This document shows, one piece after another, positions 1 through 23,572 of a stretch of DNA of 64,000 bases. The notes below the pieces were generated by a model. The model was given only the letters and a program-made list of their open reading frames with translations. It searched no databases and was not told the DNA's origin. Both the position numbers and the translations under genes were made by a program. Every line of letters begins with the position of its first letter. Positions within the stretch are counted from its first letter, which is position 1. The stretch is from assembly GCF_002095395.1 (NCBI RefSeq), contig NZ_MJEI01000105.1:62001-126000 (forward strand). Direction: 5' to 3'. The stretch is from Williamsia sp. 1135 (GTDB taxonomy: Bacteria; Actinomycetota; Actinomycetes; Mycobacteriales; Mycobacteriaceae).

Positions 1-1806
1 TCGTCGGTCCGCGACATGGCCCGTGCGCTCGGCTATTCGGTGGGACAGCAGGATGCCTGGAGCAAACAGGTGCAGCGGTACGACAAGGCCCAGCCGACCG
101 ACAGTGACATCCCCGATGATGTGCTCGATCTGGCCGGTCAGATCAACGGCATGCCGAGACATCTGGGGATCCACTCCGGTGGCATGGTGATCTGCGACCG
201 GCCCATCGCCGATGTGTGCCCCACCGAATGGGCCCGGATGCCCAATCGCAGCGTGCTGCAATGGGACAAAGATGATTGTGCTGCAATCGGATTGGTGAAG
301 TTCGACCTGCTGGGTCTCGGCATGCTCTCGGCCATCCACTACGCCATCGACTTTCTCGCCGAGCACCGCGGCATCCACGTCGACCTGGCGAAGATCGACC
401 TCACCGAGCCGGCGGTCTACGACATGCTCTGCAAGGCAGACACCGTAGGGGTGTTCCAGGTGGAGTCGCGGGCGCAGATGGCGACCCTGCCCCGGCTCAA
501 GCCCCGCGAGTTCTACGACCTCGTCGTCGAGGTCGCGCTGATCCGGCCGGGCCCGATCCAGGGCGGTTCGGTGCACCCGTACATCCGGCGCCGCAACGGC
601 CTGGAAGAGCCCACCTGCGAACACCCCTCGATGGAACCGGCATTGCGCAGGACGCTCGGGGTGCCACTCTTCCAGGAACAGCTGATGCAACTGGCAGTGG
701 ACGTCGCCGGATTCAGTTCCGCTGAAGCCGACCAGCTGCGACGGGCGATGGGGTCGAAGCGTTCCCCGGAGAAGATGGAGCGACTGCGGGCACGGTTTTA
801 TCAGGGGATGAAAGAGCTGCACGGCATCACTGGCGAGGTGGCCGACCGCGTCTTCGAGAAGATGGCTGCATTTGCCAATTTCGGTTTCCCGGAAAGTCAT
901 TCGCAGAGTTTCGCCTCGCTCGTGTTCTATTCGTCCTGGCTCAAACTCCATCATCCCGCCGCGTTCTGCGCCGCCCTGATCAAGGCGCAGCCCATGGGTT
1001 TCTACTCACCACAGTCACTGGTCGCCGATGCCCGAAGGCACGGCGTCAAGGTGCACGGGCCGGACGTCAACTTGTCGCAACCGCACGCGGACCTGGAGAA
1101 CGCGGGCTTGGACGTCCGGCTCGGCCTGGGCTCGGTGAAACACATAGGTATCGACCTGGCCGAGGCGATCGTCGCCGAACGCGAATCAGGTGGGGCGTTC
1201 ACCAATGCCGCCGACCTCTCCCGGCGCTGCGACGTCAACACCCGGCAGCTCGAGGCGCTTGCGACCGCGGGTGCACTCGAGTGCTTCGGGACCAGTCGGC
1301 GCCAAGCTCTCTGGGATGCGGGTGCGGCAGCGCAGGAGAAGTCCGATCGGCTCCCGCTGCACGAGATCAACACCTCGCCCACGCTGCCGGGGATGAGCGA
1401 TGTCGAGATGGCCGCCTCGGACGTCTGGGCCACCGGGGTCAGCCCAGATAACTACCCGACCGAGTTCATCAGGCCCCAACTCGATGCGCTGGGCGTGATC
1501 GCGGCCGTCGATCTGCTGTCGGTACCCGACGGCTCGCGGGTGCTCGTCGGGGGAGCGGTCACCCACAGACAGCGGCCCGCCACCGCGTCAGGGGTGACCT
1601 TCGTGAACCTCGAAGACGAGACCGGGATGATCAACGTGGTCTGCTCGGTGGGGTTGTGGGCCAAGTACCGCAAACTCGCCCAGACGGCCCCGGCCCTGCT
1701 GATCCGCGGCCGGGTGCAAAACGCTGAAGGAGCCGTGACCGTGGTGGCAGAACGCCTCCAACGCATGGACTTGAGAGTAGGAACCCGCTCCAGAGACTGG
1801 GCTTAA
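1..1806 (+). CDS. dnaE2: Error-prone DNA polymerase DnaE2 (3' part)
   Basis: The reading frame is open to the left edge, so only the C-terminal 600 or so residues are present. DnaE2 is the C-family polymerase of the mycobacterial SOS mutasome, which works with ImuA'/ImuB in translesion synthesis. Seen here: the third palm aspartate in VKFDLLGLGM (Asp codon 304-306), the VGVFQVESRAQM and RPGPIQGG motifs, the helix-hairpin region AFANFGFPESHSQSF, and a C-terminal OB-fold with VNLEDETGMINVV. The short C-terminus after the OB-fold and the GPIQGG motif favour DnaE2 over replicative DnaE1. The first two catalytic aspartates and the PHP domain lie outside the window. No imuA' or imuB is visible next to it. 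Confidence 0.93.
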   Translation, partial: SSVRDMARALGYSVGQQDAWSKQVQRYDKAQPTDSDIPDDVLDLAGQINGMPRHLGIHSGGMVICDRPIADVCPTEWARMPNRSVLQWDKDDCAAIGLVKFDLLGLGMLSAIHYAIDFLAEHRGIHVDLAKIDLTEPAVYDMLCKADTVGVFQVESRAQMATLPRLKPREFYDLVVEVALIRPGPIQGGSVHPYIRRRNGLEEPTCEHPSMEPALRRTLGVPLFQEQLMQLAVDVAGFSSAEADQLRRAMGSKRSPEKMERLRARFYQGMKELHGITGEVADRVFEKMAAFANFGFPESHSQSFASLVFYSSWLKLHHPAAFCAALIKAQPMGFYSPQSLVADARRHGVKVHGPDVNLSQPHADLENAGLDVRLGLGSVKHIGIDLAEAIVAERESGGAFTNAADLSRRCDVNTRQLEALATAGALECFGTSRRQALWDAGAAAQEKSDRLPLHEINTSPTLPGMSDVEMAASDVWATGVSPDNYPTEFIRPQLDALGVIAAVDLLSVPDGSRVLVGGAVTHRQRPATASGVTFVNLEDETGMINVVCSVGLWAKYRKLAQTAPALLIRGRVQNAEGAVTVVAERLQRMDLRVGTRSRDWA

Positions 1807-2038
1807 GTTTGTCTGCTCGCTCCGCTCGCTTGTCGGTGTGGCCATCAGGCGGTCGTTCTTCCCTTCTCCTCACCTCGCTGGCGCTCGTTCGTCGGCAGTC
1901 CAGAACAACCGCGGCCACCCCTCCCGGGTCCTCCTACCGCTGCGCTCGCTCAGACCCTCGTGCGTGGTTCCGTCGACCGTGCCGAAACTCCCGCCGACCG
2001 TGCCCTTGTTCGCATCGATCGGGCCCATAATCGTCTCC
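1807..2038. other. Intergenic stretch, low complexity, with a two-copy 21-nt repeat
   Basis: No convincing gene lies between the dnaE2 stop and the DUF167 start. The DNA is rich in CTCGCT and GCTCG words, and open frames through it look like by-products of that composition. Near its end sit two tandem 21-nt units, listed separately. A frame continuous with DUF167 runs back to about 1838, but the extra sequence is unlike any DUF167 N-terminus. Confidence 0.5.
1972..2013. repeat. Two tandem 21-nt units with core GNCGACCGTGCC
   Basis: Units at 1972-1992 and 1993-2013 begin GTCGACCGTGCC and GCCGACCGTGCC and have different 9-nt tails. The same 21-nt period and nearly the same core (GCCGAGCGTGCC) occur in three tandem copies at 52334-52396, also intergenic. 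A dispersed intergenic repeat family is the simplest reading. The function is unknown. Confidence 0.6.
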
Positions 2039-2266
2039 GTGGACGACATCGTGGTGACCGTCAAGCCGAACAGTCGCAAGGGGCCACTGGTCGAGGTTGC
2101 AGGCGACGGCGCTCTGACGATCTTCGTGCGTGAACCAGCCACCGAGGGCAAGGCCAACGCCGCTGTTGCGCACGTCCTGGCGAAGCACTTCGGCGTGGCC
2201 AAGTCTCGTGTCATCCTCACCGGTGGTGCGACCGCTCGCACGAAGAGGTTTCGTATCGACCGATAG
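2039..2266 (+). CDS. DUF167 (YggU family) protein
   Basis: This small protein of about 75 residues covers the whole DUF167 fold: VTVKPNSRKGP near the N-terminus, then a strand ending in FVREPATEGKANAAVAHVLAKHF and the C-terminal RVILTGGATARTKRFRI. The P.EGKAN motif is the family signature. The biochemical role of the family is not established. I chose the GTG at 2039 because homologs start just before the first strand. An upstream in-frame extension runs into repetitive DNA. No strong ribosome site is visible. Its stop codon sits in the loop of an 8-bp inverted repeat, immediately before the retron RNA. Confidence 0.75.
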   Translation: MDDIVVTVKPNSRKGPLVEVAGDGALTIFVREPATEGKANAAVAHVLAKHFGVAKSRVILTGGATARTKRFRIDR

Positions 2267-2274: not shown

Positions 2275-2283
2275 ATGGACCTG

Positions 2284-2441
2284 TGCGCGGTGGGGAGGTG
2301 AGAGTGGGTTCTTGGAACCCGTCTCAGGGGCAACCCCTGGGTACATCTCACAGTTGGTATCAGCGTCCGACGCCGCTCCGCACGCTCCGCGTGCCAGCCG
2401 GCGCCGCCGACACAAGCTCGTGGTCACCTCCCCGCCGCGCA
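2284..2441 (+). ncRNA. Retron msr-msd RNA
   Basis: The ends are complementary over 18 positions. a1 is TGCGCGGTGGGGAGGTGA at 2284-2301 and a2 is TCACCTCCCCGCCGCGCA at 2424-2441, with a single G.U wobble (2291 with 2434). Inside, the msr part has two perfect 6-bp, 3-nt-loop hairpins: 2306-2320 (GGGTTC/GAACCC) and 2325-2339 (CAGGGG/CCCCTG). The msd part is a long imperfect hairpin. Its arms are 2365-2385 and 2389-2411, with the apical stem CACGC/GCGTG around loop TCC at 2386-2388. This order (a1, msr hairpins, msd hairpin, a2, then the reverse transcriptase) is the standard retron layout. The branching guanosine should be one of the first unpaired G residues after a1 (2302 or 2304). That assignment is a guess. 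Confidence 0.88.
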
Positions 2442-2466
2442 TCTGATTCGTGACGGGCCAACCTTC

Positions 2467-2706
2467 ATGAACGACAGCTATTCCCTGGGTGGTCTGGGGC
2501 CACGTATGCGCCTGACCGCGGACTCGGTCGAGCACTTGCTGACGAGGCTCGAGGTCGATCCGCGCTGGACGGTCTCGGCGCTCGTCGAGATGCTCGTGGC
2601 GACGATGGAACAGGCCGTGGTCACGGAGCTACTCGGAATGCTGCTCGATCGATTCCTGAGCGACCCACCGATCTGGGTGATGTTCGGACGTTTCTCGCGC
2701 CGCTGA
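2467..2706 (+). CDS. Out-of-frame N-terminal extension of the retron reverse transcriptase (candidate)
   Basis: A 79-residue frame starts 25 nt after the retron a2 repeat and ends 47 nt before the reverse transcriptase ATG. It contains predicted helices (residues about 17-67) with no recognised motif. In frame it stops after a tail ending MFGRFSRR. In the -1 frame, the DNA from 2670 reads DLGDVRTFLAPLIGEP and runs without a stop into the reverse transcriptase. Joining the two at 2670 would give one protein of about 425 residues, similar to myxobacterial retron enzymes, which have N-terminal extensions. I therefore read this as the N-terminal part separated by a one-base deletion or a sequencing error. 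A separate small protein remains possible. Confidence 0.5.
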   Translation: MNDSYSLGGLGPRMRLTADSVEHLLTRLEVDPRWTVSALVEMLVATMEQAVVTELLGMLLDRFLSDPPIWVMFGRFSRR

Positions 2707-2753
2707 TCGGCGAGCCGCGGCGCCGGGAGTTCGAGGATCCGGCGGAACTGGTC

Positions 2754-3743
2754 ATGCGGTTCGACCTGCCGCGGTTACAGGACTATTCGGACGTGGCGCG
2801 CTGGCTCAACCTGACTGTCGGTGAACTGGAGTGGTTCGCCGATCGTGGTCACTGGCTGCGGACGAAGGATGGCCCGCTACAGCATTATCGGTACTGGCAG
2901 GTGCCGAAACGTCATGGCGCCCGGATGATCGAGGCGCCCAAACCCCACCTGCGGGAAATCCAACGACGCATCCTGCGCACAATTCTCGACCACATCCCAC
3001 CGCACCGGGCCGCCCAGGGGTTCGTTCCCGGCACCTCGACCGCAAGCTTCGCCTGGCCGCACACCGATCGCCCGGTGGTGGTCCGATTGGACCTGCGAGA
3101 CTGCTTCTCTTCGATCGGAACAGCCAGGGTGCGGGCCATTTTCGCGGCGGTGGGCTACGAGAGGATCGCGCGAGTCCTGGCAGAACTGTGCACGACAACC
3201 ACGCCCATTGCCCATCTTCGGGACATCGACCAGCGGCAGGCGACACTGCTGAGGCAGCGGCATCTACCGCAGGGCGCACCGACTTCTCCGGCGTTGGCGA
3301 ATCTCGTTATGCGTGGCATGGATCGCCGGATCTGGGGATACGCCCAACGAAACAGATTGCATTACAGCCGGTATGGCGACGACCTGGCGATCTCAGGCGA
3401 CCACATGAACCCGGAAGCAGTGCTGTGGGTGGTGTTGCGCATCATCGCGGATGAAGGTTTCACCGTGCACCCGGACAAGACGAAGACCATGCGTGCGCAT
3501 CAACGCCAGCAGTTGGCCGGGCTGGTGGTCAACGATCAACCGCGAGTCGCCCGACGTGACTACGACAACCATCGAGCATTGCTGCACAACGCGATTCGTA
3601 CCGGTGCGCAGGCGCAGAACAGGTCGGCGCACCCAAATTTCCGCGCGCATGTGCTCGGCAAGATCGCCTGGGTAGGGGCGACCAGCCCGCGACGACGAAG
3701 CACCTTGCTGGCGTTGGCGGAGCAGGTGGACTGGGATCGCTAG
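2754..3743 (+). CDS. Retron-type reverse transcriptase
   Basis: This 329-residue protein should reverse-transcribe the upstream msd RNA into branched msDNA. Seen in order: an N-terminal substrate-binding region (HYRYWQVPKRHGARMIEAPK, about 44-63), motif A RLDLRDCF with Asp113, the strongly conserved QGAPTSPALAN at 173-183, catalytic YGDD at 207-210 (3372-3383; most retrons have YADD), HPDKTKTM at 239-246, and LAGLVVN at 254-260, the counterpart of the retron VTG motif. The C-terminus (HPNFRAHVLGKIAWV) resembles myxobacterial Mx-type enzymes. All core blocks RT1-7 are present, so the ATG at 2754 could give an active enzyme. A weak GGCGGAA lies 6 nt upstream of it. However, the frame stays open upstream without a start, which suggests a lost fusion to the 2467 frame. 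Confidence 0.92.
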   Translation: MRFDLPRLQDYSDVARWLNLTVGELEWFADRGHWLRTKDGPLQHYRYWQVPKRHGARMIEAPKPHLREIQRRILRTILDHIPPHRAAQGFVPGTSTASFAWPHTDRPVVVRLDLRDCFSSIGTARVRAIFAAVGYERIARVLAELCTTTTPIAHLRDIDQRQATLLRQRHLPQGAPTSPALANLVMRGMDRRIWGYAQRNRLHYSRYGDDLAISGDHMNPEAVLWVVLRIIADEGFTVHPDKTKTMRAHQRQQLAGLVVNDQPRVARRDYDNHRALLHNAIRTGAQAQNRSAHPNFRAHVLGKIAWVGATSPRRRSTLLALAEQVDWDR

Positions 3744-3801: not shown

Positions 3802-4221
3802 ATGAGCCTGAGCAATTATTCGAGCAATCTCGACCGCCAAACTCCCGGTGCTGCGGACCCCAGCGACACCAAGCAGAACCTCGACGCCCAACTCCAGCAT
3901 GTACTCGGACTCGAGGACGGCTGGCAGGGTGCCGACTCACTGGCCCCGACCTCGGCCGCAAAAGAATTCTTCGAGAGATATTTCGACGGACTGCAGAGTT
4001 CATACTGGGCGGAATCAACGCCTACCGCGACCCCTGAGGGCGGCCTGCACATGGAATGGAGTCGCGACAACAGCGTCTATTCCGCGGATATCCTCGCCGG
4101 CGGTCAGCTGGTGCTGAACGTGGTCGCCCCAACTGCGACCGACAACGCCGAGCTACGTATCGAGAAACCGACCACCGCAATGCTGCGCAAATTCATCATG
4201 CGGGGACTGCCGATCGATTGA
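3802..4221 (+). CDS. Small retron-associated protein, candidate effector or accessory
   Basis: The gene lies 58 nt after the reverse transcriptase, on the same strand, and encodes 139 residues. Visible motifs are GWQG at 40-43, followed by a helix (SAAKEFFERYFDGL), then TPEGGLHMEW at 77-86 and a strand-rich C-terminus. This GW.G, helix, P.GG...EW arrangement recalls a widespread family of small uncharacterised proteins. I do not know a tested function. There is no signal peptide or membrane segment. The DNA has more AT-rich codons (AATTATTCG, TTCATACTGG) than its neighbours, consistent with transfer. TAACAT at 3790-3795 could be a -10 for its own promoter. Position alone suggests it is the retron partner. 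It ends 12 nt before the convergent trmL. Confidence 0.65.
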   Translation: MSLSNYSSNLDRQTPGAADPSDTKQNLDAQLQHVLGLEDGWQGADSLAPTSAAKEFFERYFDGLQSSYWAESTPTATPEGGLHMEWSRDNSVYSADILAGGQLVLNVVAPTATDNAELRIEKPTTAMLRKFIMRGLPID

Positions 4222-4233
4222 TTCGCCGACCGA

Positions 4234-4698
4234 CTACACCGCGCCAGGGAACCCGTGCTGCCGCCAGGCCTCGTACATCACAATGCTGGCGGCGTTCGCC
4301 AGATTGAGTGATCGCCGCCCTGGCAGCATGGGAATGCGGACCCGCTCGGTCACGTGAGGGTCCGCCAGCACGGTCTCGGACAGCCCGGTCGGTTCGGGAC
4401 CGAACAGCAGCACGTCGCCCGGTTGGTAGCTGATGTCTGTGTAGAACGTGTCCGCGTGAGCGGTGAACGCGTATACCCGTTGCGGGGCAAGTTCTTTCCA
4501 GGCGGCGAACAGGTCGGGGTGGACGGTCACCGATGCCATGTCGTGGTAATCGAGCCCGGCTCGCTTGACCTTTGGTTCGGACAGGTCGAAGCCGAGCGGT
4601 TCTACCAGGTGTAATTCACACCCGGTGTTGGCGGCGAGCCGGATCGCATTTCCCGTGTTCGGTGGGATGCGAGGTTCATGGAACAGCAGTCGAAACAC
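4234..4698 (-). CDS. trmL: tRNA (cytidine/uridine-34 2'-O)-methyltransferase, TrmL/CspR family (SPOUT)
   Basis: This SPOUT-class enzyme should transfer a methyl group from S-adenosylmethionine to the wobble ribose of tRNA. The family signature is clear: RLLFHEPRIPPNTGNAIRLA at the N-terminus, HLVEPLGFDLSEPKVKRAGLDYHD next, LLFGPEPTGLSE in the cofactor knot, and IPMLPGRRSLNLANAASIVMYE at the C-terminus. The protein is about 154 residues from the GTG at 4698, the start that matches homologs beginning just before the first strand. In-frame ATGs at 4716 and 4725 would add 6 to 9 residues, and no start has a good ribosome site. It converges on the retron partner gene and corresponds in position to Rv3366. 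Confidence 0.88.
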   Translation of the reverse strand: MFRLLFHEPRIPPNTGNAIRLAANTGCELHLVEPLGFDLSEPKVKRAGLDYHDMASVTVHPDLFAAWKELAPQRVYAFTAHADTFYTDISYQPGDVLLFGPEPTGLSETVLADPHVTERVRIPMLPGRRSLNLANAASIVMYEAWRQHGFPGAV

Positions 4699-4741
4699 CC
4701 CCCGAGCTTGCCGCATAAGTCGCATCGTCGACAAACCGGTG

Positions 4742-12949: not shown

Positions 12950-13033
12950 GCAAGAGTTCTCTTTCTCGGTCGGTGAAGCATCCAATTGAAATTGGGTCCG
13001 ACCTGCGGACCCGCGCTTGCTGCGGCGAACCGC

Positions 13034-13120
13034 AACCAGGTCATCACCCGGAGCACCCCACCGCGGTTGGAGGGTTGCCGGTCAGCGAGCCGGGGCTTGT
13101 TGCTGACACTCATGACCTTT
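13034..13120 (-). promoter_or_regulatory. SAM-IV riboswitch in the metY-metX leader
   Basis: On the minus strand the leader carries GGTCATGAGTGTCAGC, then CCCCGGC, CCGGCAACCC and GGTGGGGTGC, and closes with CCGGGTGATGACC. These are the conserved blocks of SAM-IV aptamers of Mycobacteriales as I remember them. The P1 helix is explicit: 13117-13112 pairs with 13044-13039. TATAT on the minus strand near 13133-13137 could be the -10. Binding of S-adenosylmethionine would lower expression of the methionine genes. About 85 nt separate the aptamer from the metY ATG, room for an expression platform. Confidence 0.9.
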
Positions 13121-22428: not shown

Positions 22429-23572
22429 ATGAGCCGCGGAGCCTGTGCCGAGCGGCGCCCTACAGAGCGTCATGGGTCGCCGCGGCTGGCGGCCGCGGCG
22501 GTGATCTTGGCGCTGGTTGCCATTGTCGCCGGATGCGGCGAGGGCAGTTCGGGGGACGTACGTGGCTCTTCCCGCGTGTCGACGACCGCCGACGGACTAC
22601 TCCTGGACGGTCGACCCTGGTGGCCGATCGGGTTGAACGCCTACCAACTCGGCACCGATTGGACAGTGAACAACGGCTGCGGGGCGCAGGTCGACCTCGA
22701 TTCGTACTTCGGTGCGTTGCCGGAGGATTCGGTCACCCGGTTCAACCTCTTCGCCTCGATGGCGGTCGACAAGGACACCCACGAGACCGACTTCTCCCGG
22801 TTGGATTCGATCTTCGATGCCGCGGGCCGGCACGATCAGCTGCTGGTACCGGTGCTGGCCTCGGGTGAAGGTGCCTGTGAGGACGCGAAATTCAAAGATC
22901 ACCCAGTGGTACTCCTCCGGATGGGACGACATGCCACCGGAGACCGCTCCGATGCCGTACGCCCGCTGGCTCGACACCGCAGTGGCCCGCTGGGGCTCGT
23001 CATCGTCGCTGGCCGGTTGGGAACTGATGGGTGAGCCGGAGGCGAGCAACTGTGGCGACGCGGCCTGCACCTGGCAGGCCCGAACCTGCCCGGCCGACGC
23101 CGCCCGCGTGTTGCGTTCGTTCTTCGACGACGCCGGCGCGCGTCTGAAGTCGCTCGATCCCGACACCCCGGTGTGGGCCGGGCTGGCCGGCGGCGGGCAG
23201 TGCGGAGCGCAGTTCACCGAGTACGGCGACGTCGCCGCATCGGCGGGCATCGATGTTCTCGACTACCACGACTACAGTCCGCAAGAGCTGATACCGGGCA
23301 ACCATCACGATGGACTGGCGATGCGGCTGACACAGGCGCAGGCAGTGGGCAAACCGCTGGTCGTGGCGGAGATCGGGCAGCCTGCGGGCGGCTGCGTCAG
23401 TTTGCAGGACCGCGCGGACACGCTCCTGCGCAAGGTATCGGCGCAGAACGAGGCAGGTACGGCGGGTGCACTGTTCTGGGCGTTTGTGCCAGATCCCCGA
23501 CTCGGTGAGTGCACCTTGGACATCGGACCCGGCGATCCCATTTTCGGGGTCATTCGCAAGCTCGCGGCCTAG
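22429..23572 (+). pseudogene. Frameshifted glycoside-hydrolase-like lipoprotein (GH5/mannanase-like)
   Basis: The N-terminal part (22429 to about 22890) starts with a lipoprotein signal ending in VAGC (Cys at about residue 36), then LLLDGRPWWPIGLNAYQLG and RFNLFASMAVDKDTHETDFSRLDSIFDAAGRHDQLLVPVL, typical of a TIM-barrel hydrolase. Near 22880-22900 the frame must change by +1: TTCAAAGATCACC would read smoothly (F-K-I-T-Q-W-Y) if it had two A residues instead of three. The second part, in the other frame to 23572, carries the acid/base region SLAGWELMGEPEAS and the nucleophile region PLVVAEIGQPAGGC. Either the gene is broken or the base is a sequencing error. It points toward the polysaccharide operon on the other strand, a likely functional partner. 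Confidence 0.7.

What the first reader, a model, noticed from the sequence alone, without database searches (positions are those of the whole stretch)
2467..3743. Retron reverse transcriptase appears split by a -1 frame change
The 2467 frame and the RT frame are both open around 2670. Joining at CCACCGATCTGG (reading CCG then GAT) yields a continuous product of about 425 residues ending in the RT. The RT frame has no start upstream of 2754 yet stays open. So the natural gene probably had an N-terminal extension. No canonical X-XXY-YYZ slippery site is visible, so mutation or sequencing error is more likely than programmed frameshifting.
Basis: partly seen in the sequence, partly recalled or inferred. 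Interest (0 to 1): 0.7.

Follow-up and report, generated by a model that had tools for sequence, protein, structure and literature searches.

The report
Retron enzyme gene broken by one base
A bacterial gene for a DNA-copying enzyme of a retron (usually a phage-defence element) is split in two here because one base is missing, probably a sequencing slip or a very recent mutation, whereas most relatives examined carry it as one gene beside a matching structured RNA.

Summary
ORF 2467-2706 (79 aa) and RT ORF 2754-3743 (329 aa) are pieces of one gene. In all 7 same-genus (Williamsia) genomes that carry the RT, the 5' piece is fused in frame (one ORF, 425-437 aa). The window has one nucleotide fewer than these near 2656-2659. 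A profile of the N-terminal extension matches in the RT frame in 27 of 29 relatives; in the window it is split over two frames. There is no slippery heptamer and the two-frame layout is not conserved, so programmed frameshifting is unlikely. Both parts still show purifying selection, so the break is recent or an artefact. Four other genes on the contig have similar single-base frame changes, which tips me slightly towards assembly error (about 55:45 over true mutation).

The element is a retron of PADLOC's RT_outgroup/RT_other clade with an intact msr-msd-like RNA at 2278-2445, strongly supported by covariation (31 of 43 pairs with change on both sides) and without a match in Rfam 15 at its thresholds. 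It sits at a dnaE2-trmL site in Williamsia and two other genera. No partner gene was found conserved. The split is ordinary; the RNA and the fused extension are the more useful result.

The parts
2278..2445 (+). msr-msd-like retron non-coding RNA: long terminal stem (a1/a2), two msr-type hairpins and an msd-type hairpin
   Evidence: 2270-2460 folds at -99.9 kcal/mol, z -4.3. Covariance model R1 built here: window 177.6 bits; found upstream of the RT in 27 of 31 RT-bearing sources at E<=0.01 (17 of the 21 not used to build it). 31 of 43 pairs with change on both sides, 97.2% of cells paired, 0/500 shuffles reach it. No Rfam 15 match at gathering thresholds and only chance-level ones below.
2467..2706 (+). 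5' fragment of the RT gene: N-terminal extension, then residues out of frame to the stop
   Evidence: Residues 1-67 are 92.5% identical to the start of the 425-aa W. soli RT; extension profile positions 1-59, E 3e-20.
2655..2660 (+). site of the frame change: one nucleotide fewer than in all 7 same-genus relatives
   Evidence: DNA alignment A2; pairwise blastn against W. soli.
2664..2753 (+). rest of the N-terminal extension, in the RT frame, without a standard start codon
   Evidence: Extension profile 54-87 in the RT frame, E 3e-7; no ATG/GTG/TTG in frame.
2754..3743 (+). retron reverse transcriptase core, 329 aa, YGDD active site
   Evidence: Pfam RVT_1 E 6.5e-22; PADLOC RT_other 546 bits, RT_outgroup (retron) 515 bits. 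Profile of 16 relatives against solved structures: best hits retron Ec86 RT, E about 5e-52.
3802..4221 (+). 139-aa protein next to the RT in Williamsia; probably not an obligate partner
   Evidence: Found in 9 of 9 genus genomes, including G003 which lacks the RT; no room for it between RT and trmL in three other-genus loci at the same site.
16..1806 (+). DnaE2-like polymerase III alpha subunit (name from recall), left flank of the conserved site
   Evidence: Orthologous flank in Williamsia and in L043-L045.
4234..4734 (-). TrmL-like tRNA methyltransferase (name from recall), right flank of the conserved site
   Evidence: Orthologous flank in Williamsia and in L043-L045.

Best explanation
This is a chromosomal retron of the RT_outgroup/RT_other clade: a structured msr-msd-like RNA (2278-2445) followed by one RT gene whose protein has an N-terminal extension of about 96 residues. 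In this assembly the RT gene has one base fewer near 2656-2659, so extension and RT core fall in different frames. The break is either an assembly or sequencing error (about 55%) or a very recent inactivating mutation (about 45%); it is not programmed frameshifting. Inferred way of working when intact: the RT binds its RNA, is primed from it and copies the msd part into msDNA, as in other retrons. The extension, the only constant protein part besides the RT, may be the effector, a sensor or a binding module. If the break is real, ribosomes would stop at 2706 and a 329-aa RT core could be made only by restart at ATG 2754, so the element would be impaired or would lack its N-terminal domain. Shown: homology, frame break, RNA structure, conserved site. 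Inferred: msDNA synthesis, defence role, effect of the break.
For: One fused ORF in 7 of 7 same-genus genomes with the RT; one-base difference located by alignment. Extension in the RT frame in 27 of 29 relatives (11 of the 13 not used to build the profile), against two frames in the window. Three plasmid records annotate one CDS of 421, 424 and 449 aa. dN/dS window versus W. soli 0.10 for the RT core and 0.20 for the extension. No slippery heptamer. Retron RNA with covariation. Single-base mid-gene frame changes also in a MetE-like, a PrpD-like, an LLM-monooxygenase-like and a cellulase-like gene of the same contig (names read from the sequences).
Against: L019/G045 lacks nearly all of the extension while its RT core is open, so a core-only RT may work. 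ATG 2754 has a GGAA 6 nt upstream and the codon is ATG in all 7 Williamsia relatives, so a separate 329-aa product cannot be excluded. The excess of frame breaks in the window's contig is small: 4 of 151 shared genes against 1 of 152 and 1 of 152, and the 4 include the RT itself and one gene whose gap may lie before the true start. Slightly more nonsynonymous change in the RT core on the window branch (13 synonymous, 7 nonsynonymous) than on the W. soli branch (17, 4).
Confidence: 0.92

Rival explanations
1. Assembly or sequencing error: the organism's gene is intact and only the deposited sequence lacks a base.
For: Four other genes of the window's 320-kb contig have single-base frame changes in mid-gene, most beside short C runs, relative to W. 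soli and, for three of them, also W. sp. 1138. Three-way test: 4 of 151 shared genes (the RT among them) against 1 of 152 in each relative. Both parts of the RT gene show purifying selection.
Against: Small counts. The cruder test (8 of 159 against 2 of 181, Fisher p 0.05) included the RT and three genes whose gap lies before the likely start. No reads. RTs are broken in other genomes too.
Confidence: 0.52
2. Real, recent one-base deletion that inactivates or truncates the retron RT in this strain.
For: The RT decays elsewhere: matches are split into pieces in different frames in G018, G055, G056 and G064, and G003 has no RT at the same site. RT core on the window branch 13 synonymous, 7 nonsynonymous, against 17 and 4 on the W. 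soli branch, a weak hint of relaxation.
Against: Extension still constrained: window branch 1 synonymous, 0 nonsynonymous before the junction and 2, 0 after it. Other frame breaks on the contig suggest a common technical cause.
Confidence: 0.42
3. Programmed -1 frameshifting makes a 425-aa fusion, with a 79-aa protein as the default product.
For: The two open frames overlap and the shift needed is -1.
Against: No X-XXY-YYZ heptamer in 2467-2706. All 7 genus relatives encode the fusion in one frame.
Confidence: 0.02
4. Two separate genes by design: a small protein and a 329-aa RT that starts at ATG 2754.
For: GGAA 6 nt before ATG 2754. In a low-confidence model the alignment with Ec86 RT begins at residue 95, so the 329-aa ORF could hold a whole RT core. 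L019 lacks most of the extension.
Against: Extension in frame with the RT in 27 of 29 relatives. In the window the last part of the extension is left in the RT frame without a start codon.
Confidence: 0.04

Closest known systems
PADLOC retron RT families RT_other (PDLC02949) and RT_outgroup (PDLC03740)
   Same: The intact W. soli protein matches them at 573 and 540 bits, extension included.
   Different: The window's RT ORF matches only from profile position 143 (RT_other) or 80 (RT_outgroup), because the gene is split.
Retron Ec86 (Eco1) RT
   Same: Best solved relatives by profile, E about 5e-52.
   Different: Alignment with Ec86 starts at residue 95 of a low-confidence model, so the extension has no counterpart there. 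Ec86 has a separate effector (title of 7v9x); no conserved neighbour was found here.
Type XIII retron RT (PADLOC RT_XIII)
   Same: Next best PADLOC family, 315 bits; its profile also has 107 positions before the match.
   Different: Scores 200 bits or more below RT_other and RT_outgroup.
Myxobacterial retrons (Rice and Lampson 1995, seen only as cited in passages of PMC8867640)
   Same: Reported evidence for vertical inheritance of a chromosomal retron.
   Different: Different phylum (recalled); sequences were not compared here.

Membership tests
Retron | Retron-clade reverse transcriptase | tested here: met
   PADLOC RT_outgroup (retron) 515 bits and RT_other 546 bits for the core ORF; the profile of 16 relatives hits Ec86, Ec67, Kva2, Ec78, Ec83 and Eco8 RTs best among solved structures.
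Retron | YxDD catalytic motif | tested here: met
   YGDD in the window; Y303, D305, D306 invariant in the 16 relatives aligned.
Retron | msr-msd RNA next to the RT with a terminal inverted repeat (a1/a2) | tested here: met
   2278-2445; terminal helix of 18 pairs, 17 with changes on both sides in 31 sequences.
Retron | Retron-typical region X (NAxxH) and region Y (VTG) motifs (recalled) | tested here: inconclusive
   By eye the window has FAWPH and LAG at the likely equivalent places; L032, L033 and L037 have VTG.
Retron | Priming from a branching G and production of msDNA | not testable with these tools
   Needs an experiment.
Retron | Associated effector gene or fused effector domain | tested here: inconclusive
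   No ORF family other than the RT in more than 5 of 29 loci within 3.5 kb, with a simple ORF picker that can miss genes; whether the fused extension is an effector is unknown.
Programmed -1 frameshift gene | Slippery heptamer at the junction | tested here: not met
   None in 2467-2706.
Programmed -1 frameshift gene | Conservation of the two-frame layout | tested here: not met
   One frame in 7 of 7 genus relatives and in 27 of 29 relatives overall.

The most novel reading that the evidence does not exclude
An old, mainly vertically inherited retron at the dnaE2-trmL site of Williamsia and neighbouring genera works without a separate effector gene: its N-terminal helical extension is itself the effector or sensor. 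The window strain, if its break is real, would be a natural separation of that domain from the RT.
Probability: 0.2. Interest if true: 0.6.

Novelty: new member of a known kind. Interest (0 to 1): 0.3.

Why it matters
The split explains itself and warns against reading this RT as a 329-aa enzyme or as a frameshift-regulated system. The by-products are useful: a covariance-supported retron RNA that no Rfam 15 family matches at its threshold, the gene layout in Mycobacteriales, a retron at one chromosomal site across three genera, and a fused N-terminal extension with no conserved partner gene found, which makes it a testable candidate for the missing effector of this clade.

Tried and rejected
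Structure: the fold of the single W. soli protein was useless (mean pLDDT 38.5). With 7 sequences the mean was 54.7; residues about 21-80 of the extension (four helices, block means 78-89) and part of the palm were fair, the rest poor. Foldseek on PDB gave one match at E<=0.001, retron Eco2/Ec67; the viral library none; the second aligner mostly matched the palm fold. The extension was not folded or searched alone, so its fold is untested rather than new. Pfam HTH_32 in the 79-aa ORF (E 0.003, below the curated cut-off) was not accepted.

Partner: the 139-aa ORF was considered as effector and set aside, because G003, without the RT, keeps it and other-genus copies of the site lack it. Its weak match to PADLOC PDC-M32A (E 7e-6) was not followed.

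Artefact test: 8 of 159 W. soli genes matched in the window's contig looked frameshifted, the RT included. After looking at gap positions three were dropped because the gap lies before the likely start (condensation-domain-like, nitroreductase-like, aldehyde-dehydrogenase-like; names and starts by eye). The Fisher test used all 8.

Mistake mended: read minus-strand loci in the wrong orientation; replace them and 14 and 15 are not used for the gene structure.

Literature (held open-access library only): searches, of which I saw listings. Passages only were seen of PMC12548924, PMC12262390, PMC9252829, PMC8867640 and PMC8934634. None of these mentioned a retron of Williamsia, Gordonia, Rhodococcus, Tsukamurella or Dietzia in what I saw, but one search listed only 15 of 1,601 papers (all with 0 occurrences of 'retron'). 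Mestre et al. 2020, which may describe this clade and its RNA, is not held. PADLOC's own msr-msd covariance models (passages of PMC9252829) could not be run, so the RNA may be known there.

Full report
What is there. The RT frame is open upstream to a stop at 2451 and has no ATG, GTG or TTG before 2754. That alone is weak: 29% of 100-codon stretches in this window are stop-free, and 9% of those also lack a start.

Relatives settle the gene structure. Of 8 same-genus genomes searched, 7 carry the RT (G003 does not). In all 7 the upstream sequence is in the RT frame and gives one ORF of 425 aa (three genomes) or 437 aa (four) from the likely start. The DNA alignment shows one nucleotide fewer in the window near 2656-2659. 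A profile of the extension made from 16 relatives matches in the RT frame in 27 of 29 relative loci, 11 of 13 among those not used for the profile; L018, L028 and L029 are weak. The exceptions are L019, where the extension is almost missing, and L030, where it lies in another frame. In the window the profile is split: positions 1-59 in the ORF1 frame, 54-87 in the RT frame. PADLOC's RT_outgroup profile is matched from position 7-12 in five intact proteins and from 80 in the window's RT ORF. Three plasmid records (Dietzia, Tsukamurella, Burkholderia) annotate one CDS of 421, 424 and 449 aa.

Programmed frameshifting is unlikely: no X-XXY-YYZ heptamer in 2467-2706, and none of the 7 genus relatives has the two-frame layout.

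Mutation or error. Window versus W. soli dN/dS is 0.10 for the RT core and 0.20 for the extension. With W. sp. 1138 and W. limnetica as outgroups, the window branch has 1 synonymous and 0 nonsynonymous changes in the extension before the junction, 2 and 0 after it, and 13 and 7 in the RT core; the W. soli branch has 3 and 1, 0 and 1, 17 and 4. So the break is recent or not real, with at most a weak hint of relaxation in the core. I compared the window's 320-kb contig with the matching contigs of W. soli (294 kb) and W. sp. 1138 (271 kb), which is part of the 5.98-Mb assembly. Besides the RT, mid-gene single-base frame changes occur in a MetE-like, a PrpD-like, an LLM-monooxygenase-like and a cellulase-like gene (no W. 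sp. 1138 match was found for the LLM gene, and the W. sp. 1138 PrpD-like gene itself differs from W. soli near its end). A three-way test gave 4 frameshifted of 151 shared genes for the window's contig, 1 of 152 for W. soli and 1 of 152 for W. sp. 1138. The 4 include the RT and one gene whose gap may lie before the start; the MetE-like gene is not among them. These numbers are small. I put assembly error at about 55% and true mutation at about 45% of the lesion reading (lowered a little from a first 60:40 on noticing that the RT is one of the 4). RT matches are also split into pieces in different frames in G018, G055, G056 and G064, so a true mutation is plausible.

The retron. Upstream, 2270-2460 folds at -99.9 kcal/mol (z -4.3). 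A covariance model from 17 homologs found the RNA upstream of the RT at E<=0.01 in 27 of 31 RT-bearing sources (17 of the 21 not used in building; L060 only in part). It was not found for L007, L059 and L120, and for L123 only at E 0.18; L118, which lacks the RT, has none. No match at E<=0.01 lay elsewhere. It was also found in the Dietzia and Tsukamurella plasmids but not in the Burkholderia one at E<=0.001. On 31 sequences, 97.2% of cells pair, 31 of 43 pairs have changes on both sides, and no shuffle or slid version comes near. That alignment was fitted to the model; the unfitted one of 17 sequences already has 19 of 43 such pairs. Rfam 15 has no match at its thresholds; below them only chance-level ones appear. 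The RT core is closest among solved structures to retron Ec86. So the locus is a retron by RT and by RNA; msDNA has not been shown.

Site and partners. The retron lies between dnaE2-like and trmL-like genes in the window, in all 7 Williamsia relatives with the RT, and in three loci of two other genera; G018 has RT fragments between dnaE2-like and folD-like genes. G003 has the DUF167-139aa-trmL-folD order without the RT, on a contig that ends there. In the other loci examined dnaE2 and trmL were not found within about 5 kb, and some relatives are on plasmids, so transfer also occurs; no tree was built. Among 29 loci no ORF family other than the RT was shared by more than 5 within 3.5 kb, using a simple ORF picker. 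The adjacent 139-aa protein is present in all 9 genus genomes including the RT-less one, so it is not an obligate partner. The extension was predicted as four helices with fair confidence; its fold was not identified.

How it most likely works. Intact relatives: RT plus RNA make msDNA (inferred from family membership); defence is the usual role of retrons (established for others, not shown here). The extension could be effector, sensor or RNA-binding module; undecided. In the window the RNA looks intact (177.6 bits) but the protein is interrupted. If the break is real, only restart at ATG 2754 (GGAA 6 nt upstream) could give an RT core.

Verdict. The split is ordinary; the value is in the RNA family and the fused extension.

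Noticed in passing
L006 (NZ_JNYV01000003.1), whole locus: The record titled Kitasatospora arboriphila NRRL B-24581 carries Williamsia gene order and 89% identity in dnaE2; probably mislabelled or contaminated.
   Followed up: partly
window 22429-23572: A cellulase-like lipoprotein gene has a one-base frame change near 22902 compared with W. soli and W. sp. 1138.
   Followed up: partly
G000:C35 171391-173992, 158937-160617 and 54364-55831: MetE-like, PrpD-like and LLM-monooxygenase-like genes with single-base mid-gene frame changes relative to W. soli.
   Followed up: partly
L019 (G045): An RT relative keeps the ncRNA and an open RT core but has nearly lost the N-terminal extension.
   Followed up: partly
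window 13008-13117, minus strand: SAM-IV riboswitch, 110.6 bits.
   Followed up: no
window about 52336: 42-nt insertion of repeated units relative to W. soli.
   Followed up: no
window 1838-2266: A DUF167-like gene (name recalled) beside the retron was found in L002, L003 and G003 (L118) but not at the loci L001 and L004-L006.
   Followed up: no
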